A stretch of 64,000 bases of DNA from Mycobacterium sp. 050128 (lineage in GTDB: Bacteria; Actinomycetota; Actinomycetes; Mycobacteriales; Mycobacteriaceae): assembly GCF_036409155.1 (NCBI RefSeq), contig NZ_JAZGLW010000003.1, positions 124,001-188,000 on the forward strand, read 5' to 3'. The notes beneath the pieces were generated by a model that searched no databases, was not told the DNA's origin, and worked only from the letters and a program-made list of their open reading frames with translations. Both the position numbers and the translations under genes were made by a program. Shown one piece after another: positions 3,626-12,967 of this stretch. The stretch's first letter is position 1; each line of letters opens with the position of its first letter.

Positions 3626-4354
3626 ATGGCCATCCGGCGCGGCGTGCTGCTGATCGCGGACATCAGCGGTTACACGGACTACATGAATTGGAACCGGATG
3701 CACCTGGCCCACGCACAATTGGCGGTGGCGCAGCTGCTGGAATCCGTCATCGATGCTGGCAAAGGCCTCAAAGTGGCGGAACTCGAGGGCGACGCCGTCT
3801 TCTTCTGGGGGCCTGACGGTGACGCCAAAGTCCTGGTTTGCGAGCGACTATCGCAGATGCGGCGGTCGTTTTTCGCTCGACGCGAGCGGATCAAACGAGA
3901 CTTCAGCTGCGACTGCGACTCGTGCGGGCAACTGGACAATCTGACGATCAAATTCGTCACTCACGAGGGCGAGGCGGCCGAGCAAAAGATCAAGCGCCAG
4001 CGCAAGCTCGCCAGCGTCGACGTCATCCTCGTGCATCGCATGCTCAAAAACCACGTGCCCGTCTCGGAGTATGTGCTGATGACGGACGCCGTCGTCCAGG
4101 GTCTCGACGAGTCGGTCCGCAAGCTTTGCCTGCCCTTGACCCACGATTTCGAGGGCATCGGAGAAACGTTGACACATTACATCGATCTGTCGGTCTCCGA
4201 GGTGCCACCGCTGGTTGCACAACGCAGCTTGTCCGGACGCCTCGGCGCCAAGGCGAAATTCGAGCTGAATTCGTTGCCCTTCATCCTGGGCTTCAGGAAG
4301 CCCGCCGAGGGATTCCGCAATTTGGGCCGCGGCGCCGAGGAAATTCCCGCATAG
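3626..4354 (+). CDS. DUF2652 (nucleotidyl-cyclase-fold) protein
   Basis: A 242-residue protein starting [20 protein letters not shown], the DUF2652 opening that resembles a class III adenylate cyclase core (IADISGYT, then [10 protein letters not shown]). Residues about 93-102 form a small cysteine cluster, CDCDSC, possibly a metal site. The complete set of cyclase metal and adenine residues cannot be confirmed by eye, so enzymatic activity is not claimed. It lies divergent from dhmA with 114 bp between them, and 23 bp from the convergent end of the aminotransferase gene. Confidence 0.75.
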
Positions 4355-4377: not shown

Positions 4378-5577
4378 TTACTGGGCATCGACGAGTGCAC
4401 GGCCCATACGTGATACGGCTTCGGTGAGAATCGCTTGCGAGGTAGCGAAATTCAGCCGCACATGGCCGGCTCCGCCGGTGCCGAACACATGGCCGGAGCT
4501 CAGCGCGACACCGGCGTGGTCAAGAAACCAGCGAGCCGGCCCGGACAGGTCGGCCACCACCGCGAGGCCATCGTCGGCATCTTCGGTAAAGCCGAGACGG
4601 CGGCAGTCGAGCCAGGCCAGGTAAGTGCCCTGGGTGCCTTGATATTCCACTTGTGGAAGGTGTTCGGCGACCAGGTCGCTCAGTAACGTCCGGTTGGCGT
4701 CCAGGCCCTGCAGCAGCGCGTCGAGCCAGTCGTCGCCGGTTCGGAACGCTTCCGCGTGCGCGATGACGCCCAGGTGGCTCGGTCCGTGGCTGACTTCTTC
4801 CGGCATCCGCTGCAGATCCGCCGCCGCCTCCGGTCCGGCGATGGCCAGGGCCGCCTTGAGTCCGGAAAGGTTCCACGCCTTCGAGGCGGAGGTCAGGGCG
4901 AACGCGTCCTCGGCGCCCGGAACACTCAGGTACGGCGTGAATTGCGATCCCGCCAGGATCACTGGCGCGTAAATCTCGTCTGCGACCACCCGCACGCGAG
5001 TCCGCCGCGCGCATTCGGCCACCGCGCGCAACTCGTCGACGGTGTGTACCGTGCCCGTCGGATTGTGGGGATTGCACAGCAAATACGCGACCTTTCGGCC
5101 CGACGCCCGTGCGCGCGTGAACGCTTCCTCCAACGCCTCCAACGCAATTCGCCCGTCGGGATCGAGCGGCGCCTCGATCACCCGCCGACCCGAGTGTGAC
5201 ACGAACGCGTAAAACGGCGCGTAGACCGGAGAATTGACGACGACCGCATCGCCCGGGTCGGTGATAAGCCGCAGCGTCTCAACGACTCCGAGCATGACGT
5301 CGGGGACGATCCTCGTACGGGTGACCTCGAGGTCGTGCCACTGCCAACGCCGCGAAGCGAATTCACCGACGGCCTCGGCGAGTGCGGTGCCCGACGGGTA
5401 GCCGGTATCGCCGATGTCGATCGCCACGCGCAGGGCATCGGCGACGGTGGGTGGGAGCTTGACGTCCATCTCGGCGACCCACAGCGGCAGGACGTCGGCG
5501 GGATACGCGCGCCACTTCATGCTGCTGCGGAGCTGCAGTTGCCCCAGCGTGAGTTCCTCGAGTGGATTGTCCGTCAT
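4378..5577 (-). CDS. PatB/MalY-type PLP-dependent aminotransferase (C-S lyase)
   Basis: A 399-residue fold-type I PLP enzyme. Lys233 in SASKAWN should form the Schiff base, and NPHNPTG (169-175) and ADEIYAP (about 199-205) line the cofactor site. [19 protein letters not shown] near the N-terminus is typical of the MalY/PatB cystathionine beta-lyase branch. It closely resembles the recalled Rv2294 product. Likely roles are beta-C-S lyase or aminotransferase activity in sulfur amino acid metabolism. ATG 5577 is preceded by a GGCGGGA run. Confidence 0.88.
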
Positions 5578-5613: not shown

Positions 5614-6711
5614 TCAGCCGGTCACAAACGCGCCCTTGGGGATCGTCAACGGCAAGTCGACTGAACTCAAAAGTCCGGGCTCGGCGGCGACGACATAGGG
5701 CACGGCGTTGACGACGCGCATGGCGGTGGCGACCATGGCGCCCGCGCCGGACGTCATACCCCCGACGCCGGCCTGCTGCGGATCCTTCAGCGTTGCCGCG
5801 AGGGTGCAGTCGATATCGGGATCACCACTGATCTGGACGCGGTAGGACAGGTCGCCGATACCTTCCGGCCAGTCCGGGGCGACGTCGTGCGCGAGTCGCG
5901 TGACGTGCTCGATGATGATCGCTTCGCGGCCGTCGACGATGCCGGTGGCGCGCATGCGCAGCGCGCCGCACGTTCCCGCCTCGACGGTACCCATCGCGAC
6001 CTCCAGCGTCCGGTTGGTGACCGCGCGGTCGAAATACTCACGGACTTCCTGGACTTCGACTCCGAGCGCGTCGGCGATCAACCGGATCTGCCCCTGCCAT
6101 TCGCCGGCGATCGCGCCCGGGAAGCCGATCCACGGTTGGTAGTCGAGCGGCCGGCCGAAGCCCAACGCGTCGCTCATGATGTCGGGCACGCCGTAGTCGT
6201 CGTACAGGCCGATCTCCCACGCGTGAATCTGGTCGATGGACGACGACTGCGTGGACAACACCAACGGCAGATAGTCGGCGGCAAAGCCCGGCTCGATCCC
6301 CGAGGCGTAGAGCGACGCCTGGCCCTGCTTGGCCGCGGCGACCAGCTGGTCGCGCCACTCGGCGGGTTCGTAGGCGTGCGGATTGACCAGACGCGTCGTG
6401 CTCGTCGTGACCACGTTGATCCCGGCCTCGAGCAGCCGGACGTAGTCAGGGATGGCCAGGGCGTCGCGTTCGGGGCCGCTGGCCGCGTAGATCACGCAGT
6501 CCGGCTTGCACGCGATCAGCGCATCGGCGTCGGTGGTGGCCTTCAGGCCGATCGGCTCACCGTTGGCGAGTTCGCCGGCATCCTTGCCGTCCTTCTCCGG
6601 GGAGTGCACCCACACCCCGACCAATTCCAGATTGGGGCGCCGACCGATCGCGCGGATGGCGATGGAACCGATTCCGCCCGTTGCCCATACCACTACCCGC
6701 TGAGCCGTCAT
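5614..6711 (-). CDS. DapB-fold NAD(P)-dependent reductase (amine dehydrogenase-like)
   Basis: A 365-residue oxidoreductase with an N-terminal Rossmann motif, VVVWATGGIGSIAIRAIG (residues 6-23), and an Asp-rich dehydrodipicolinate-reductase-like core. It belongs to the family also called NAD(P)H-dependent amine dehydrogenases. A related copy lies at 54539-55624; they share GIDPGFA/GIEPGFA, HVNRIGLDAAPDWP/HVTRLAHDVAPDWP and a C-terminal ALNAVP/VVNAVP. Many actinobacteria carry several such paralogues of undefined substrate. It is divergent from the LLM oxidoreductase at 6926, and the shared promoter region contains a putative operator (6833-6848). Confidence 0.78.
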   Translation of the reverse strand: MTAQRVVVWATGGIGSIAIRAIGRRPNLELVGVWVHSPEKDGKDAGELANGEPIGLKATTDADALIACKPDCVIYAASGPERDALAIPDYVRLLEAGINVVTTSTTRLVNPHAYEPAEWRDQLVAAAKQGQASLYASGIEPGFAADYLPLVLSTQSSSIDQIHAWEIGLYDDYGVPDIMSDALGFGRPLDYQPWIGFPGAIAGEWQGQIRLIADALGVEVQEVREYFDRAVTNRTLEVAMGTVEAGTCGALRMRATGIVDGREAIIIEHVTRLAHDVAPDWPEGIGDLSYRVQISGDPDIDCTLAATLKDPQQAGVGGMTSGAGAMVATAMRVVNAVPYVVAAEPGLLSSVDLPLTIPKGAFVTG

Positions 6712-6832
6712 GTCGTTCCTCCTCAGTTGCGTGCGTGATGAAAGCTGAGGCGGCCGTTGCCCTTACGCCGACAGTTACCCAACGTTCGAAACGGAAGCTA
6801 ACAGCCGCGAGCCAACACGGTCAAGGGTTTAA

Positions 6833-6848
6833 GAGAGTAAGTACTATC
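6833..6848. promoter_or_regulatory. Putative operator GAGAGT-AAGT-ACTATC (third copy of a shared dyad)
   Basis: The 16-bp sequence GAGAGTAAGTACTATC matches, with one arm mismatch, the two GATAGT-N4-ACTATC dyads at 9955 and 9978. The 10-mer TACTATCCTA is shared exactly with 9964-9973. It lies between divergent oxidoreductase genes. A TetR-type protein would be a natural reader; the one at 10028 is the nearest candidate. Confidence 0.45.
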
Positions 6849-6867
6849 CTAAAGAACAAATCTTAGG
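6848..6867. promoter_or_regulatory. Imperfect inverted repeat CCTAAAGA-acaaa-TCTTAGG
   Basis: The arms CCTAAAGA and TCTTAGG pair with one bulged base across a 5-base spacer. The site directly abuts the putative operator at 6833-6848, in an A/T-rich patch about 60 bp before the LLM start, so it could be a second protein-binding site or overlap the promoter. Confidence 0.3.
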
Positions 6868-6925
6868 TTAATGTGCGGGGTGTGAGGGTCGACCGGCGGG
6901 AAATCGATCTCCTGGCGGCGCGCTG

Positions 6926-7915
6926 ATGTTCACACTGAGGTTCGACATGCGCGCCCCGGCGTGGGCTGGTCCGGCCGCCGATGTGTACGCGGCGGCCATC
7001 GCCATGTGCGCGTGGGCAGAGACCCGCGGCGGCGTGCTGGCCGTGCTGTCCGAGCACCACGGCACCGACGACGGTCACCTGCCGGCACCGCTCACGCTGG
7101 CGTCGGCGATCGCGGCCAGGACCAATAGCTTGGCGATTCTGCTGGCTGCCGTGCCGATTCCGCTGTGGGATCCTGTCCGGCTCGCCGAAGAGATGAGCGT
7201 GCTGGACCTGATCAGCCGTGGACGGGTGTCCTACGCGTTCGGCGTCGGTCATCGCAGTGAGGAATACGACCACTTCGGCATCGACATGAGCACGCGCGGT
7301 CGAGTCGCCGACGAGATGCTGGCCGTGCTGGGCCCGATGGTGCGGGGCGCATCCGTCGAATACCGAGGCCGCGAGGTCCGCGTCACCCCACCGTGCGCGT
7401 CGCCCAACGGGCCGACGCTGCTGATCGCCGGCGGCAGCAAAGCCGCGGCGCGCCGCGCCGGCCGCCACGGGCTCGGGTTAATCTCCCAGACCGCCTTGCC
7501 CGGCCTCAAGGAGTATTACGAGGAGCAGTGTCGTGCGCACGGGTACGAGCCCGGAATCATCCAATTCCCCCAACCAGATTCTCCGACAGCGGTTTTCGTG
7601 GCCGACGATGTCGATGAGGCATGGGAGGAGCTCGGGCCACACCTGTTGCACGACGCGAAAACAGCGGCGTCCTACCGGCCGCACGACGATTCGGTAGCCA
7701 GCATCACCCGCGCCGACAGCGTGGCGGCACTTCGCGAAGACAACGGCCCGTACCGCATTTTCACGTCCGACGAGGCCGCTGCCTACGTCCGCGGCGGGCA
7801 ACTGCTGCCACTGGCTCCGCTCTGCGGCGGCGTCGCACCCGATGTGGCGTGGCCGTACCTCGAACGCGCCGCGGCCGCCGCGAGGACCTCCGGACCAACC
7901 GGGCAGCGAGAGTGA
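6926..7915 (+). CDS. LLM class flavin-dependent oxidoreductase (copy 1)
   Basis: A 329-residue bacterial-luciferase-like protein: TIM-barrel start MFTLRFDMRAP, SEHHGTDDGHLPAPLTLASAIAAR near residues 45-70, and the LAEEMSVLDLISRGRVSYAFGVG block. It would use FMN or F420 to oxidise or reduce a small organic substrate. The next gene (8046-9020) is a clear paralogue with the same opening (MYTLRFDMRDP), so the pair arose by tandem duplication. The ATG overlaps the TGA of a possible 14-17-codon upstream reading frame (GTG 6882 or 6873), which could couple translation. Confidence 0.85.
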   Translation: MFTLRFDMRAPAWAGPAADVYAAAIAMCAWAETRGGVLAVLSEHHGTDDGHLPAPLTLASAIAARTNSLAILLAAVPIPLWDPVRLAEEMSVLDLISRGRVSYAFGVGHRSEEYDHFGIDMSTRGRVADEMLAVLGPMVRGASVEYRGREVRVTPPCASPNGPTLLIAGGSKAAARRAGRHGLGLISQTALPGLKEYYEEQCRAHGYEPGIIQFPQPDSPTAVFVADDVDEAWEELGPHLLHDAKTAASYRPHDDSVASITRADSVAALREDNGPYRIFTSDEAAAYVRGGQLLPLAPLCGGVAPDVAWPYLERAAAAARTSGPTGQRE

Positions 7916-7961
7916 ATCTGACGACGCTGCGGCGGCGTGTCGCGTCGCAGGATTCACACTC
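7908..7961. terminator. Imperfect 20-bp-arm palindrome, possible hairpin terminator or intergenic repeat
   Basis: Left arm 7908-7927 (gagagtgaatctgacgacgc) and right arm 7942-7961 pair at 16 of 20 positions around a 14-base loop. It overlaps the end of the first LLM gene and has no U-tract, as expected for mycobacterial hairpins. Its GAGTGTGAA core (minus strand) recurs at 11905-11952, so it may instead belong to a dispersed repeat family. Confidence 0.45.
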
Positions 7962-8045
7962 GGCATCCCGACGACGCTGCCGCGTTACGCCTTCGACTGA
8001 GCATGTAACGTGCATCACAACGATTAGGCCATCTAGGAGTTTGCC

Positions 8046-9020
8046 GTGTACACACTGCGCTTCGACATGCGCGACCCCGAGTGGGCTGCGCCCCCCGCCG
8101 ATCTCTACGCCGCGGCGCCCGAGATGTGCGCGTGGGCTGAAGATCACGGTGGTCTGGCCGCCGTTATCTGCGAGCATCACGGGTCGGAGGATGGCTATCT
8201 GCCGTCGCCGTTTTTGCTGGCCTCAGCGGTGGCCGCGCGAACGCAGCGGCTGGCGCTGAACCTAATTCTGATCCTGCCGTTCTATGAAACCGTGCGCCTG
8301 GCAGAGGACATGGCGGTGCTCGACATCATCAGCAACGGGCGGGCGTCGTACATCCTGGCGCTGGGCTACCGGCCCGAGGAGTTCGAGCACTTCGGCGTGC
8401 CGATCAAGAAGCGCGGCCGCGTCTGCGACGAGAAACTGGCGCTGTTACGGCGACTGCTTGCCGGTGAAACGGTCGAAGAAGACGGACGGCGCATCACGGT
8501 GACGCCGCGCCCGCTGACGCCCGGGGGGCCGGGATTGATGTGGGGCGGTGGAACGGTGGCCGCGGCCCGTCGTGCCGGCCGATACGGGCTGGGCATGCTC
8601 GGCAATGCAAACGAGCCCGGCATGCAAGAGGCCTACGAGCAGGCCTGCCGTGAGCACGGCCATCAGCCCGGTCCGACGATGTTTCCCGATCGCAACACCC
8701 CGTCGGTCGTTTTCGTCGCCGACGATCTGGACCAGGCGTGGAAGGAGATCGGGGAGCATCTGCTGCACGACGTGCAAACCTATGCGGCATGGAATCCCGG
8801 CGACGAGACGACGGCGGGATTCTCGCACGTGAAGACGGTCGACGAGCTGCGCGCCAAGCCGACGTCGCACATCATTATCTCTGTGCCAGAGGCGATTTCG
8901 CGAGTCCGCGCCGGCCAGATGCTCAACTTGTCGCCGTTGTGTGGCGGGCTGCCGCCGGACATCGCGTGGCCGTATCTCAAACGGGTGGGCGAAGAGGTGC
9001 TGCCCGAGGCGCTGGGCTGA
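8046..9020 (+). CDS. LLM class flavin-dependent oxidoreductase (copy 2)
   Basis: A 324-residue paralogue of the preceding gene: MYTLRFDMRDPEWAAPPADLYAAAPEMCAWAE, CEHHGSEDGYLPSPF, and the conserved C-terminal LSPLCGGLPPDIAWPYLKR (LAPLCGGVAPDVAWPYLER in copy 1). GTG 8046 is supported by AGGAG at 8035-8039. The reaction is presumably flavin- or F420-dependent oxidation of a hydrophobic substrate. The 130-bp gap with its own palindrome suggests independent expression or a processed operon. It is convergent with the AveC-like gene, with 4 bp between the stops. Confidence 0.85.
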   Translation: MYTLRFDMRDPEWAAPPADLYAAAPEMCAWAEDHGGLAAVICEHHGSEDGYLPSPFLLASAVAARTQRLALNLILILPFYETVRLAEDMAVLDIISNGRASYILALGYRPEEFEHFGVPIKKRGRVCDEKLALLRRLLAGETVEEDGRRITVTPRPLTPGGPGLMWGGGTVAAARRAGRYGLGMLGNANEPGMQEAYEQACREHGHQPGPTMFPDRNTPSVVFVADDLDQAWKEIGEHLLHDVQTYAAWNPGDETTAGFSHVKTVDELRAKPTSHIIISVPEAISRVRAGQMLNLSPLCGGLPPDIAWPYLKRVGEEVLPEALG

Positions 9021-9024
9021 CGGC

Positions 9025-9810
9025 TCACTTGGGTTGGTTCGGTACGCCTGGGTACAGCTGCTCGGTCGGTCCCGCGGTCACATAGCCGCCCAGCTTCGTA
9101 ATGAGATGGGGCGCAAAGACCGCGCCGTACACCAGGTGTCCGACGACGATGACGGCCACGATGGACAGCACCGCGGACTGCCCCCGGCTCTTCGATCTCT
9201 TGTCGGCCCACATATCGATGACATTGCGTCCTTGTTCATCGGTGCGGCCGAGCAGATAGGTGAAGACCATCATCTGGATGCCCATCGCGAGCGAGTCGTA
9301 CAGCGGGTATTGGTGCTTGGTCCCCTCGAAGATCGCCAGGCCGGGAATCACGTAGCCGTAGTAGAAGTTGCCGAGCTGGGCTCCGGTGAAGGCGTTGAAA
9401 AACAGTGCCCAGCAGAACCCGACGACGAGGCCGACCACGAGCAGGGTAATCGGCCTGCGCCAGTTGAACTTTGCACTCAGCCAGCGTCCCAGGGCCGCCG
9501 CGGTGACGGCGGGAATGATGAAGTAGGAGACGTAGCCGACCGGCACCGCCAACGGCAACCCGCCCCACGTCATGTTCAGCGGCCACCAGGACGGCATGCG
9601 GGGCAGCGCCGGCGGAAACTGTGCGTACATCGCCCAGTCGTAGGGTGACTCGATCCACGAGAACGAGATCGCCGAAACGCCGAGCAGCAACAGCGGATGG
9701 ATGCGGCGGCGACGGTAACTCAAATAGATGCCGATCACCAGGAACGTGATGCTCGCGACGTAGGAAAAGTACTGAGCCCCGGCCATCACCGGCGTCATTT
9801 CGGTGTTCAC
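9025..9810 (-). CDS. Spirocyclase AveC-like polytopic membrane protein
   Basis: A 261-residue integral membrane protein with about seven hydrophobic segments (first at about residues 12-32, last at about 212-235). The long aromatic-rich loop with SWIESPYDWAMYAQFPPALPRMPSWWP and the NAFTGAQLGNFYYGY region match the AveC family, whose founding member acts in avermectin spiroketal formation. Mycobacterial homologues have no known function. GTG 9810 overlaps the stop of an upstream 38-codon gene as GTGA, so translation is probably coupled. It is encoded opposite the TetR/P450 pair. Confidence 0.75.
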   Translation of the reverse strand: MNTEMTPVMAGAQYFSYVASITFLVIGIYLSYRRRRIHPLLLLGVSAISFSWIESPYDWAMYAQFPPALPRMPSWWPLNMTWGGLPLAVPVGYVSYFIIPAVTAAALGRWLSAKFNWRRPITLLVVGLVVGFCWALFFNAFTGAQLGNFYYGYVIPGLAIFEGTKHQYPLYDSLAMGIQMMVFTYLLGRTDEQGRNVIDMWADKRSKSRGQSAVLSIVAVIVVGHLVYGAVFAPHLITKLGGYVTAGPTEQLYPGVPNQPK

Positions 9811-9923
9811 TGGCGGCCCTTTTCGATCGGCGCGCCCCGGGCTTCGGGATCGAAGCGGAGTACCAGCCCGAAAATCAGGATGATCAGGCCGAACAGCGTG
9901 CCGAGCATGATGACAGCGCCCAT
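9807..9923 (-). CDS. 38-residue single-span membrane peptide coupled to the AveC-like gene
   Basis: ATG 9923-9921 opens a 38-codon frame that ends in TGA 9809-9807, overlapping the GTG of the AveC-like gene by 4 bp. A GAAAGG ribosome site lies 7 bp upstream. The product starts MGAVIMLGTLFGLIILIFGL and has one hydrophobic helix (residues 2-22), followed by a charged tail containing RFDPEARG. The start, ribosome site, coupling and promoter context support a real gene. A small accessory subunit or stabiliser of the AveC-like protein is an inference. Confidence 0.7.
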   Translation of the reverse strand: MGAVIMLGTLFGLIILIFGLVLRFDPEARGAPIEKGRQ

Positions 9924-9954
9924 GGTGTCACCTTTCGACGATGCGCAACTTTAA

Positions 9955-9970
9955 GGTAGTGGATACTATC
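9955..9970. promoter_or_regulatory. Putative TetR operator, copy 1 (GGTAGT-GGAT-ACTATC)
   Basis: This 16-bp site is part of an exact 15-bp direct repeat, tagtggatactatcc, found at 9957-9971 and 9980-9994. Each copy forms a dyad of the type GATAGT-N4-ACTATC. The sites fill the promoter between the divergent small membrane gene and the TetR gene at 10028, the normal location for a TetR autoregulatory operator. Confidence 0.6.
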
Positions 9971-9971
9971 C

Positions 9972-9981
9972 TATCTAGATA
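9972..9981. promoter_or_regulatory. Perfect 10-bp palindrome TATCTAGATA between operator copies
   Basis: TATCTAGATA is self-complementary and bridges the two 15-bp direct repeats, giving the whole 9955-9994 block overall near-symmetry. It could extend the operator or contain a -10-like element (TAGATA) for one of the divergent promoters. Confidence 0.4.
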
Positions 9982-9993
9982 GTGGATACTATC
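9978..9993. promoter_or_regulatory. Putative TetR operator, copy 2 (GATAGT-GGAT-ACTATC)
   Basis: Here the dyad arms GATAGT and ACTATC are perfect complements across a 4-bp spacer. The centre-to-centre distance from copy 1 is 23 bp, about two helical turns, which would favour cooperative dimer binding on one face of the DNA. Confidence 0.6.
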
Positions 9994-10027
9994 CCCAAGG
10001 CGTGAGGTTTAGGAGGGGTGGACAGCA

Positions 10028-10678
10028 GTGCCCGAGCGAGCGATTAAGCAGCCGATACCGGCGACGGTGGTGCGTCGGCCCCGCGGCGAGCCGCGCAGGC
10101 TGCTGCTCGACGCCGCCCGGGCGCTCTTCGCCGGCCAGGACTACCGCAGCACCACAACGCGTGAAATCGCTCAGGCCGCCGGCGTCACCGAGCACCTGCT
10201 GTTCCGCAATTTCGGCTCGAAGGCGGCGCTGTTCCGCGAGGCACTCGTCGTGCCCTTCGTGAACTTCGTCGACGAGTTCGGCAAGACCTGGCAGTCGGTG
10301 GTCCCCGAGGAGACCGACGAGGAGGAGCTGACTCGGCTGTTCGTATCGCGGCTCTACGACGTGTTCGTCGAACACCAGGGCCTGCTGCTGACGCTGATGG
10401 CGGCCGACAATCTCAGCGACGAGGAAAAGGCCGACGCCGGCATCGCCGAGATCCGCCGGGCGGTCACGGTGCTCGGCCAAATCAGCGTCGAGGGAATGCA
10501 ATTGCGCGGGTTGCGGTCGGACCATCCCGACTTGCCGGCCCACTCAACGGTTTCGATGATCGCGGGAATGGCCGCGCTGCGTTCGACCTACTTCGGGGAC
10601 ACGCCACCGCCGCGGGAGGTGATCGTGGAGGAACTCGTTCAAGCGCTCTTGCACGGCTTCTTGCACCGCAACGACTGA
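10028..10678 (+). CDS. TetR family transcriptional regulator of the AveC/P450/LLM cluster
   Basis: A 216-residue regulator with an N-terminal TetR HTH (RRLLLDAARALFAGQDYRST, then TTREIAQAAGVTEHLLFRNFGSKAALF). GTG 10028 follows AGGAGG (10011-10016). The P450 gene begins 15 bp after its stop, so the two form one transcript. Two operator-like dyads (9955-9993) lie directly upstream and a third lies at 6833. Repression relieved by a substrate of the neighbouring oxidases is the simplest model, by analogy with other TetR-controlled catabolic clusters. Confidence 0.88.
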   Translation: MPERAIKQPIPATVVRRPRGEPRRLLLDAARALFAGQDYRSTTTREIAQAAGVTEHLLFRNFGSKAALFREALVVPFVNFVDEFGKTWQSVVPEETDEEELTRLFVSRLYDVFVEHQGLLLTLMAADNLSDEEKADAGIAEIRRAVTVLGQISVEGMQLRGLRSDHPDLPAHSTVSMIAGMAALRSTYFGDTPPPREVIVEELVQALLHGFLHRND

Positions 10679-10693
10679 GTTAGGGATCCGACT

Positions 10694-11896
10694 ATGACAA
10701 GCGCCAATGCCGTCGAGTTGTATTACGACCCATTCGACGTCGAGATCGATTCGAACCCATATCCGGTGTGGAAGCGCATGCGCGAAGAAGCGCCGCTGTA
10801 CTACAACGAGAAGTACAACTTCTACGCGCTGAGCCGCTATGACGACGTGGTCCGCGAACTGCCGAACTGGGAGACGTACCGCTCAGGCCGGGGCACCACC
10901 GCCGATATCTTATTCGCGAATATCGAAGTGCCACCGGGCATTCTGTTGTTCGAGGATCCTCCGCTGCACGATCTGCACCGCAAACTACTATCCCGTGTTT
11001 TCACGCCCAGGCGCATGTTGGCAGTCGAGTCCATGGTGCGTGGATTCTGCATCCGTGAGCTGGACCCCCTGATCGGCGGGAGCGGGTTCGATTTCATCGC
11101 GGACCTCGGTGCGATGATGCCGATGCGAACCATCGGCTATCTCTTGGGCATCCCCGAAGAGGATCAAGAGAAGATCCGCGATCGGAGCGTCGCCAACATC
11201 GAGCTGTCCAAGGACAGCGACCCCGCCGCAATCGATGCGAACGTCTTCGCGAATTCCATCGCGTTGTTCGCGGAGTACATCGAATGGCGGGCCAGTCATC
11301 CGTCCGACGACCTGATGACCGAACTGCTGCGCGCCGAGATCGATGAGCCGGACGGGACGCGGCGACCGCTATCGCGGACCGAGGTGCTGGCTTATACCGC
11401 GATGATCGCGGGTGCCGGCAACGAAACCACGGCTCGCCTAATCGGTTTCATGGGACAGCTGTTGTCGGATCACCCTGACCAACGCCGTGAGCTCGTCGCG
11501 GACCCGTCACTGATCCCCGGCGCGATCGAGGAGACACTGCGCTACGAGCCGCCGTCTCCGGTGCAGGCCCGCTATGTCGCGCGCGATGCCGAGCACTATG
11601 GTCGCGTGGTTCCCGAGGGGTCGTTCATGCTGCTGCTGAACGCGTCCGCCAACCGCGACGAAAACCACTTCACGGATCCGGATCGTTACGACATCCACCG
11701 CCGCGGAAGTCATCTCAGCTTCGGGCAGGGCCTGCATTTCTGCTTGGGCTCGGCGCTGGCCAGGTTGGAAGCGCGGGTGGCCTTCGAAGAAGTCCTCAAG
11801 CGCTGGCCCGACTGGGAAGTCGACTACGCGAACGCCCAGCGGGCGCATACTGCAAGCGTGCGCGGCTGGGCGCGTTTGCCTGTTCTCGTGGGATAA
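10694..11896 (+). CDS. Cytochrome P450
   Basis: A 400-residue soluble bacterial P450. The heme thiolate is Cys350 in FGQGLHFCLG, the I-helix oxygen-activation motif is AGAGNETT (239-246), and the K-helix ExxR is Glu280-Arg283 in EETLR. It needs ferredoxin and reductase partners, which are not encoded nearby. It is cotranscribed with the TetR gene just upstream. The sequence resembles CYP123-like mycobacterial P450s in its opening, but I cannot assign a CYP family. Confidence 0.9.
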   Translation: MTSANAVELYYDPFDVEIDSNPYPVWKRMREEAPLYYNEKYNFYALSRYDDVVRELPNWETYRSGRGTTADILFANIEVPPGILLFEDPPLHDLHRKLLSRVFTPRRMLAVESMVRGFCIRELDPLIGGSGFDFIADLGAMMPMRTIGYLLGIPEEDQEKIRDRSVANIELSKDSDPAAIDANVFANSIALFAEYIEWRASHPSDDLMTELLRAEIDEPDGTRRPLSRTEVLAYTAMIAGAGNETTARLIGFMGQLLSDHPDQRRELVADPSLIPGAIEETLRYEPPSPVQARYVARDAEHYGRVVPEGSFMLLLNASANRDENHFTDPDRYDIHRRGSHLSFGQGLHFCLGSALARLEARVAFEEVLKRWPDWEVDYANAQRAHTASVRGWARLPVLVG

Positions 11897-11977: not shown

Positions 11978-12967
11978 CTAGAAAATGCTTTGGTCCACCA
12001 GCACCGCGCCGTCGGGCTGGTTGCCGAGGGTGTGCAGCGGAATGTCCTCGTCCTGGACCGTCAGAAGGACAATCTGGGCCAACTGCCGGGCAGCGTCGCA
12101 CTGCACGTAGTGATCGGCGCCCGGCACCACCCAGTAGCGATTTCGACCGGGCTTGGCCTTGAGGTACGTCTGCCACACGTGGTTGGGGACGCGCAGCGGC
12201 GCGACGTTGTCGTGCAGTCCCCACACCACGGTGGTGTTCACGTGGCTGGTGGAAAGTGCTTCAAGCCAACTAGTTTCGTCGGCGGCGCGCTCGTTCAGAT
12301 ACTGGATGGTGTCCGGCAGTACCCGGATTCCGTCGTTGTGGGCAAAACACTTGGCCAGCGCGTCGATTTCAGGGTCGGTCAATTTCCTTCTCGGCATGAA
12401 GGTGCTGGCCCCCATGCCGGCCGCCAGCGTCTCCGGTGTGGTCGCCGCCGCGGTGGCTCGCCCGGTTTCAGGATCGAGCAGCGCGGTTTGGAACAGCGTC
12501 AGATTCGCCAGCGGCAGGTACAGGTTGGCGTTGGTCAAGATGAGGTCGAGAGGCGCGAGCGGCGGGTCCAACGCCGCCAACATGCCCAGCGCGATCATGC
12601 CGACGCTGCTGCCGCGATCATGGGTGAGCATGCGAAATTCGGTCAGTTGCCACACTTCGGTGATCGCGTGCACGAGCAGACGCGCATCGTCGTACAACGA
12701 ATAGACGTACGGCTCGGGCGGTTTGTCCGACAATCCGTAACCCGGAAAGTCCAACAGGTAGATGTCGAAGTCGGAGCTCAGCTCGTGCGCCAACTCGAAG
12801 TAGTCGATGCTCGACGTCGGAAAGCCATGAACGAGCACGAGCGGCGGTGCCCCAGCCGTGCCGCAGCGGCGACTGAACACCCCCACTTCCTGCCCGTCGT
12901 TGGCGGCGGTAGTCGACCGCCAGCGAAGTTCGGTCCCGCCCTTTTGCCACTCCGCGAAGATGTCCAA
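11978..12967 (-). CDS. Alpha/beta hydrolase with Asp nucleophile (epoxide-hydrolase/dehalogenase type)
   Basis: A 329-residue alpha/beta hydrolase. The oxyanion motif HGFPTSSIDY and the nucleophile elbow THDRGSSVG place Asp, not Ser, at the catalytic position, as in epoxide hydrolases and haloalkane or fluoroacetate dehalogenases. The late PGADHYVQCDA supplies the catalytic His. Which reaction it performs cannot be decided by eye. It is convergent with the P450 operon across a hairpin; functional linkage (P450 epoxidation followed by hydrolysis) is plausible but only inferred. Confidence 0.8.
   Translation of the reverse strand: MDIFAEWQKGGTELRWRSTTAANDGQEVGVFSRRCGTAGAPPLVLVHGFPTSSIDYFELAHELSSDFDIYLLDFPGYGLSDKPPEPYVYSLYDDARLLVHAITEVWQLTEFRMLTHDRGSSVGMIALGMLAALDPPLAPLDLILTNANLYLPLANLTLFQTALLDPETGRATAAATTPETLAAGMGASTFMPRRKLTDPEIDALAKCFAHNDGIRVLPDTIQYLNERAADETSWLEALSTSHVNTTVVWGLHDNVAPLRVPNHVWQTYLKAKPGRNRYWVVPGADHYVQCDAARQLAQIVLLTVQDEDIPLHTLGNQPDGAVLVDQSIF

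What the first reader, a model, noticed from the sequence alone, without database searches (positions are those of the whole stretch)
5614..11896. Predicted AveC/LLM/P450 regulon sharing a GATAGT-N4-ACTATC operator
Three dyads (6833-6848, 9955-9970, 9978-9993) occur only in the two divergent promoter regions of this cluster, and TACTATCCTA is shared exactly between the two regions. They connect a DapB-fold reductase, two LLM oxidoreductases, a spirocyclase-like membrane protein, a small membrane peptide, a TetR and a P450. Together these could form an undescribed oxidative or cyclising pathway acting on a hydrophobic substrate.
Basis: partly seen in the sequence, partly recalled or inferred. 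Interest (0 to 1): 0.85.

Follow-up and report, generated by a model that had tools for sequence, protein, structure and literature searches.

The report
TetR-controlled oxidation gene cluster in mycobacteria
A small family of mycobacterial genes for oxidising and perhaps reshaping an unknown oily compound appears to be switched by its own repressor protein through a short palindromic DNA site that is kept in dozens of related species; the way of switching is ordinary, the gene set and its substrate are undescribed.

Summary
Three copies of GATAGT-N4-ACTATC (1, 1 and 0 mismatches) are the only matches with up to 2 mismatches in the window, all in the two divergent promoter gaps. Comparison makes the regulon prediction strong. 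In 80 related loci, all 66 with the adjacent TetR gene have a site within 1 mismatch of RATAGTN4ACTATY in the TetR/AveC gap; none of the 14 without it does. The LLM/DapB gap keeps a site in 25 of 27 loci, 0.09 expected. Across 148 same-genus genomes, 58 of 73 exact sites lie in the TetR gap, 3 before an unlinked DapB gene, 12 elsewhere; control 14. The better operator is RATAGTGNNCACTATY. A conserved 38-aa membrane micropeptide overlaps the AveC start. The DapB-fold proteins lack the catalytic glutamate of native amine dehydrogenases. The AveC model has no clear structural match. Binding, repression, inducer and chemistry are untested. This is an undescribed regulon of an ordinary kind (local TetR autorepression) over an unassigned P450/LLM/AveC pathway; no spirocyclase activity is shown.

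The parts
4378..5577 (-). PLP-dependent enzyme (PatB C-S lyase/aminotransferase-like), 36 bp downstream of DapB1 on the same strand; probable second gene of the DapB1 unit in this clade
   Evidence: Pfam Aminotran_1_2 5.7e-34; NCBIfam PatB 262.6 bits, below its cut-off of 340; present in 32 of 81 loci including the window. Co-transcription inferred.
5614..6711 (-). DapB1: DapB-fold NAD(P)-dependent oxidoreductase, 365 aa
   Evidence: PF19328 6.1e-15; related to native amine dehydrogenases but without their catalytic Glu
6833..6848 (.). operator 1, DapB1/LLM1 divergent gap
   Evidence: site with up to 2 mismatches in 25 of 27 homologous gaps, 0.09 expected
6926..7915 (+). LLM1, luciferase-like oxidoreductase, 329 aa
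   Evidence: PF00296 1.9e-35
7964..7995 (+). 32-bp stretch matching L044 (M. triplex) just upstream of its LLM2; about 1 kb that holds DapB2 there is absent between LLM1 and LLM2 here
   Evidence: blastn; DapB2 present in 28 of 81 loci, the window not among them
8046..9020 (+). LLM2, luciferase-like oxidoreductase, 324 aa
   Evidence: PF00296 1.2e-35
9025..9810 (-). AveC-like membrane protein, 261 aa
   Evidence: PF17198 1.9e-79, 266.8 bits against cut-off 26.6; AlphaFold2 model mean pLDDT 86.6
9807..9923 (-). 38-aa micropeptide with one hydrophobic stretch, stop overlapping the AveC start (GTGA)
   Evidence: in 79 of 80 loci, 722 synonymous against 274 non-synonymous codon changes relative to the window; 4-nt overlap with AveC in 57 of 73 distinct peptides
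9955..9970 (.). operator 2, 31 nt before the micropeptide start
9978..9993 (.). operator 3, 34 nt before the TetR start, 23 bp in register from operator 2
10028..10678 (+). TetR-family regulator, 216 aa
   Evidence: PF00440 2.7e-16; ortholog at E<=1e-50 in 67 of 148 same-genus genomes
10694..11896 (+). cytochrome P450, 400 aa, 15 bp after tetR
   Evidence: PF00067 2.9e-21; FGQGLHFCLG and AGNETT seen in the translation; best solved chains 6gmf and CYP130

Best explanation
The cluster is a small TetR regulon. The TetR at 10028-10678 binds as a dimer to RATAGTGNNCACTATY operators that sit just upstream of, or over, the start of both divergent promoter pairs. It represses its own gene with the P450, the micropeptide-AveC pair, and in cis the DapB1(-PatB) and LLM1-(DapB2)-LLM2 units (in trans where DapB1 lies elsewhere). 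A hydrophobic substrate or intermediate lifts it off and the whole oxidation/cyclisation set is made together. Shown: operators, their conservation, their near-confinement to these genes, co-occurrence with this TetR, gene order, peptide coding. Inferred: binding, repression rather than activation, the inducer, and the chemistry (P450 hydroxylation, LLM oxidation, DapB-fold redox step, AveC-type dehydration or cyclisation of a keto-alcohol). The confidence below is for the regulon, not for the chemistry.
For: (a) 66 of 66 loci with adjacent TetR have a site with up to 1 mismatch to RATAGTN4ACTATY, 0 of 14 without. (c) Of 148 same-genus genomes, 56 of 67 with the TetR ortholog and 6 of 81 without it have an exact site (cross-tabulated in 58). 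(d) Of 73 exact sites, 58 are in the TetR gap, 3 before an unlinked DapB1, 12 elsewhere; control 14. (e) Where DapB1 is unlinked, 11 of 18 TetR-positive genomes examined have a site with up to 1 mismatch before it, and 0 of 3 TetR-negative genomes do. (f) A recognition-helix residue shifts with the outer operator base: Tyr with A-containing sites in 55 of 55, His/Ala with G-only sites in 55 of 56 distinct protein-site sets.
Against: No binding or expression data. In TetR-less loci the micropeptide-AveC pair often follows another gene on the same strand (an SDR start visible in 7 of 14), so they may simply lack a promoter there and (a) is confounded. (e) is not significant alone (Fisher p 0.09); 7 of 18 TetR-positive genomes lack the unlinked DapB1 site, and three of the 11 positives first came to notice through their exact motif. 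(f) is essentially one split on the tree (2-3 changes, 2 independent pairs on supported branches), so it carries the weight of one event. L281 (G177) has only a 2-mismatch site in the TetR gap. The related loci are not independent samples. No sigma-70-type promoter match was found in either gap, so repression by occlusion is inferred from position only. Two of the 12 off-cluster sites lie beside other TetR genes (L179, L222), so similar palindromes serve other TetRs. In the window's genome the motif with up to 2 mismatches is only twofold over control (62 against 32).
Confidence: 0.85

Rival explanations
1. TetR controls only its own divergent promoter (tetR-P450 and micropeptide-AveC); the LLM/DapB site is a decayed or independent palindrome bound by something else.
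For: The LLM/DapB sites are imperfect: GATAGT is invariant but the right half is RCTYTC in 25 of 25. 7 of 18 TetR-positive genomes with unlinked DapB1 have no such site.
Against: 25 of 27 linked gaps keep it, and 11 of 18 unlinked DapB1 promoters carry a site of A-type form (AATAGT...), 3 of them exact.
Confidence: 0.1
2. TetR acts as an activator of these genes rather than a repressor.
For: Sites lie 31-34 nt before the start codons of two transcription units; no promoter consensus was found there, so the position relative to -10/-35 is unknown.
Against: Most characterised TetR proteins are repressors (abstract start of PMC3511530 in the listing); sites this close to the start codon suit occlusion (inference).
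Confidence: 0.08
3. The palindromes are conserved for another reason (RNA hairpin, recombination site, another regulator); TetR is a bystander.
For: In TetR-less loci the divergent promoter often seems to be gone too, so TetR and promoter are confounded.
Against: Sites also stand before unlinked DapB1 genes in TetR-positive genomes. Six of 81 TetR-negative genomes have an exact site, none with an AveC or DapB relative in the stretch read around it. The outer half-site base changes with a recognition-helix residue.
Confidence: 0.04

Closest known systems
Local TetR-family autorepressor systems of mycobacteria, e.g. KstR (PMC1995591, one passage read) and the families surveyed in PMC4482099 (one passage read)
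   Same: TetR with a palindromic operator in its own divergent gap and lipid/P450-type target genes (KstR part partly recalled)
   Different: Operator sequence differs from the KstR sites printed in the passage of PMC1995591; the four half-site strings searched do not occur in the main text of PMC4482099; target set (AveC/LLM/DapB) differs
Mce3R of M. tuberculosis (PMC11667970, title and start of abstract in the listing; PDB 9b7y)
   Same: Best PDB hit of the TetR (4.4e-12), over the DNA-binding domain only, residues 13-74; regulates lipid-related genes
   Different: Mce3R is a double TetR binding a non-palindromic sequence (title and abstract); this one is a single 216-aa TetR with a palindromic site
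AveC spirocyclase/dehydratase of avermectin biosynthesis (activity recalled), Pfam PF17198
   Same: Same Pfam family, E 1.9e-79
   Different: No polyketide synthase among the genes scanned; neighbours are P450, LLM and DapB-fold genes; activity not tested
Native amine dehydrogenases (PMC11164908, passages read; PDB 6g1h, 6iaq, 6iau)
   Same: Same fold family, E 3.5e-21 to 6.9e-8
   Different: The Glu-Glu pair that holds the catalytic Glu is absent in 57 of 57 DapB1 and 41 of 41 DapB2-class distinct matches; PMC11164908 places Glu-less members mainly in group G5 and reports G5 enzymes without it as inactive on its tested substrates

Membership tests
TetR-family transcriptional regulator | TetR_N helix-turn-helix above Pfam cut-off | tested here: met
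   59.5 bits against 24
TetR-family transcriptional regulator | Palindromic operator linked to the gene across species | tested here: met
   66 of 66 loci with TetR, 0 of 14 without
TetR-family transcriptional regulator | Ligand-relieved DNA binding | not testable with these tools
   needs EMSA and ligand screen
AveC-like (PF17198) | Profile match above cut-off | tested here: met
   266.8 bits against 26.6
AveC spirocyclase | Spiroketal-forming or dehydratase activity | not testable with these tools
   no biochemical data; no solved relative by sequence up to E=1
AveC spirocyclase | Known solved fold shared | tested here: inconclusive
Native amine dehydrogenase | Catalytic glutamate at P3 | tested here: not met
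   TTSTTRLVNP stands where the solved relatives have (A/S/G)EE(M/A); that this pair holds P3 is recalled, the need for P3 Glu is from PMC11164908
Luciferase-like monooxygenase superfamily (PF00296) | Profile match above cut-off | tested here: met
   123.2 and 123.8 bits against 27.9
Luciferase-like monooxygenase superfamily (PF00296) | Assignment to an F420- or FMN-dependent subfamily | tested here: inconclusive
   no NCBIfam cut-off reached; sub-threshold hits to both kinds
Cytochrome P450 | Haem-thiolate motif FxxGxxxCxG | tested here: met
   FGQGLHFCLG read in the translation; Pfam 76.2 bits against 22.8

The most novel reading that the evidence does not exclude
The regulon encodes an undescribed mycobacterial pathway in which an AveC-family membrane enzyme works with a dedicated 38-aa membrane micropeptide as an obligate subunit, converting a keto-alcohol made by the P450, LLM and Glu-less DapB-fold enzymes of the same regulon into a cyclised or dehydrated lipid-like product; a second AveC-P450-SDR-ALDH operon that often lies beside it would be part of the same pathway.
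Probability: 0.3. Interest if true: 0.65.

Novelty: new member of a known kind. Interest (0 to 1): 0.45.

Why it matters
A defined operator and a defined gene set turn a group of 'unknown oxidoreductases' found in many non-tuberculous and environmental mycobacteria into one testable unit: the inducer of the TetR would point to the substrate. If the micropeptide is needed for AveC, it would be a new small subunit of a poorly understood membrane enzyme family. The Glu-less DapB-fold pair gives a natural context for a kind of protein (group G5 of PMC11164908) whose reaction is open there.

Tried and rejected
Split-AveC idea: that the micropeptide is the detached first helix of AveC, since paralogs have an extra N-terminal helix, often followed by a DPRV motif. 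Profile comparison gave 2.8% probability and the paralog model was weak (pLDDT 64.2); not supported.

DapB1 as an amine dehydrogenase: rejected, catalytic Glu absent.

Recognition-helix covariation as strong independent evidence: downgraded to one evolutionary event (there L192 and L210 were coded non-Tyr by my pattern, recoded).

Other regulon members by exact motif: the 12 off-cluster sites are at control level. Two lie beside other TetR genes (L179, L222). The gene left of the L160 site, which I first took for a TetR, is a pyridoxamine-phosphate-oxidase-like protein.

Unlinked DapB1 set: 18 TetR-positive genomes were examined. G156, G279 and G245 were left out because their DapB1 match is cut or partial, G194 and G202 because contigs are split; of these G202 (L244) has a 1-mismatch site and G194 (L251) has too little upstream DNA to tell.

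Literature: 'AveC-like'+mycobacteria 0 papers; AveC+Mycobacterium+TetR+P450, spirocyclase+Mycobacterium, AveC+P450+mycobacteria and 'spirocyclase AveC' gave no paper on this cluster in the listings. PMC10876796 only lists a spirocyclase/P450/SDR/ALDH/CbbQ gene set among strain-specific genes (passage); PMC5819568 lists an indel in an AveC-family protein (passages). Half-site strings with TetR (44 and 60 papers, 20 listed each) gave no matching operator in the two opened: EMSA probes of PMC6016246 and a KstR motif table of PMC1995591 (passages). The library holds open-licence PMC papers only, so absence elsewhere in print is not shown.

Full report
WHAT WAS CHECKED. The three dyads are real and are the only matches to GATAGT-N4-ACTATC with up to 2 mismatches in the 64-kb window (0.40 expected). 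The 10-mer TACTATCCTA occurs exactly at 6842 and 9964 and nowhere else in the window. In the whole genome the degenerate motif is only about twofold enriched: 62 places with up to 2 mismatches against 32 for the reversed pattern. There is one exact site and four with 1 mismatch; three of these five are in this cluster, and the other two fall inside ORFs picked by my script. A single genome would therefore leave room for doubt; comparison removes most of it.

THE GENES. Pfam assigns DAP_DH_C to 5614-6711, Bac_luciferase to 6926-7915 and 8046-9020, AveC_like (PF17198) to 9025-9810, TetR_N to 10028-10678 and p450 to 10694-11896. A 38-aa peptide lies at 9807-9923 on the minus strand; its stop overlaps the AveC start. 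The PLP-enzyme gene at 4378-5577 follows DapB1 by 36 bp on the same strand and is found in 32 of 81 loci including the window, so it probably belongs to the left-hand unit in this clade. The alpha/beta hydrolase gene at 11978-12967 is a frequent neighbour (37 of 81) but convergent, so I leave it out of the regulon.

CONSERVATION OF CLUSTER AND OPERATOR. A scan of the genome-contig collection (84,980 species) confirmed 194 related AveC stretches; the best 80, at 71% identity or more, were kept (records nearest the window may be left out). In these 80 loci the TetR ortholog is adjacent in 66. All 66 have a site within 1 mismatch of RATAGTNNNNACTATY in the TetR/AveC gap (44 exact, 22 with 1); of the 14 without TetR none has one (best 3-4 mismatches). 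In the 1.55 Mb of those loci only 4 places with up to 2 mismatches lie outside the two gaps. These loci are related to each other and are not independent samples.

THE OPERATOR REDEFINED. Over 82 sites chosen for fit to the outer half-sites, the middle is also constrained: position 10 is C in 82, position 8 is T in 76 and position 7 is A or G in 77. The site reads RATAGTRTSCACTATY in gene orientation, i.e. RATAGTGNNCACTATY with 7-bp half-sites. In the window there are two sites 23 bp apart in register (9955/9978; likewise 9823/9846 in L044), one 31 nt before the micropeptide start and one 34 nt before the TetR start; the same 23-bp spacing is seen in L100 and L102. No sigma-70-type promoter match was found in either gap, so promoter occlusion is an inference from position.

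GENOME-WIDE TEST. In 148 same-genus genomes an exact RATAGTN4ACTATY occurs 73 times in 62 genomes, the reversed control 14 times. The TetR ortholog (E<=1e-50) is in 67 of 148. An exact site is in 56 of the 67 and in 6 of the other 81. One of the 73 sites is the window's own; for the other 72 I fetched about 8 kb on each side where the contig allowed (2 kb on one side for L163). In all, 58 lie in the TetR gap (one of them, L218, without an AveC match), 3 in the gap before a DapB1 gene about 19 kb from the AveC cluster (L163, L169, L170), and 12 elsewhere, which is about control level. Two of those 12 are next to other TetR genes (L179, L222). Among 18 TetR-positive genomes examined with unlinked DapB1, 11 have a site with up to 1 mismatch before DapB1 (8 plus the three exact ones); 7 do not (G254, G277, G165, G189, G249, G215, G236). 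Of 3 TetR-negative genomes with DapB1 (G029, G171, G231), none does. This last contrast is not significant alone (p 0.09). Five further genomes were left out as cut or split (see Tried and rejected).

SPECIFICITY RESIDUE. In the TetR recognition helix (V-T/S-E-x-L-L-F-R and close variants) residue x is Tyr in 55 of 111 distinct protein-site sets, all with A/T-type or mixed outer bases, and His or Ala in 56, of which 55 have only G/C-type sites; L053 has one mixed second site. A 112th set (L281) had no site with up to 1 mismatch; its best in that gap has 2, while its DapB1 gap keeps the window's GAGAGTAAGTACTATC. On a tree built without the helix the change is essentially one split, so it counts as one event, consistent with but not proof of direct reading.

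WHAT THE GENES SAY ABOUT FUNCTION. The commonest arrangement among the 81 loci is TetR-P450 // micropeptide-AveC, LLM2-DapB2-LLM1 // DapB1-PatB (10 of 81). DapB2 is in 28 of 81 loci and two P450 copies in 11 of 81. The window lacks DapB2: against L044 (M. triplex) about 1 kb is missing between LLM1 and LLM2, with a 32-bp match to L044 left at 7964-7995. DapB1 and DapB2 resemble native amine dehydrogenases but lack their Glu-Glu motif in 57 of 57 and 41 of 41 distinct matches (one of the 41 is DapB1-like at this place). The amine-dehydrogenase survey PMC11164908 (passages read) places Glu-less members mainly in group G5 and reports those without the Glu as inactive on its substrates. The LLM proteins reach no NCBIfam cut-off, so the cofactor is open. 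The AveC model is good (pLDDT 86.6) but matches no solved structure convincingly. The micropeptide is kept in 79 of 80 loci with 722 synonymous against 274 non-synonymous codon changes relative to the window, where a neutral single change would be synonymous in 29%; 57 of 73 distinct peptides overlap AveC by 4 nt. In at least 18 of the 80 loci an AveC paralog (24-30% identity) lies in the fetched 10-kb flanks. In L163/L164 that paralog is in an operon-like row with SDR, aldehyde dehydrogenase (by sequence only) and P450 genes, near a double-TetR regulator and a VWA/CbbQ pair. In 7 of the 14 TetR-less loci an SDR start like that of this row is visible just upstream of the micropeptide-AveC pair on the same strand. 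This suggests that both AveC modules serve one pathway on a hydrophobic compound; the compound is unknown.

VERDICT. The regulon prediction is well supported and its mechanism is most likely ordinary local TetR autorepression with extension to a second divergent unit. No paper on the pathway turned up in the open-licence searches, and its chemistry is not shown. I rate it a new member of a known kind, of moderate interest; the micropeptide-AveC pair and the Glu-less DapB enzymes are the parts most worth a specialist's time.

Noticed in passing
L163:4519-13132 and L164:6350-7267: Near the AveC cluster lies a second module, annotated in full only here: double TetR_N regulator, nitroreductase, SDR, VWA protein, CbbQ/NorQ AAA ATPase, Peripla_BP_6 protein and a 381-aa AveC paralog, followed by P450 and SDR genes. 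The AAA/VWA pair beside P450 genes is unexplained.
   Followed up: partly
L179:8001-8016 and L222:8001-8016: Near-identical palindromes (GATAGTCGCTACTATC, GATAGTAGTTACTATC) stand directly before other TetR genes, so this half-site seems to be used by more than one TetR family.
   Followed up: partly
L214:8001 and 9486 (G273): Two exact GATAGTN4ACTATC sites 1.5 kb apart in a genome without the TetR ortholog, near a stretch resembling the TetR at 34% identity.
   Followed up: no
window 3626-4354: DUF2652 protein gene next to the PLP-enzyme gene, present in 30 of 81 loci; role unknown.
   Followed up: no
G085:C1:3251509-3251619: A short AveC match (62% identity over residues 212-248, open frame of 75 aa) in a genome without a full ortholog, perhaps a decayed copy.
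   Followed up: no
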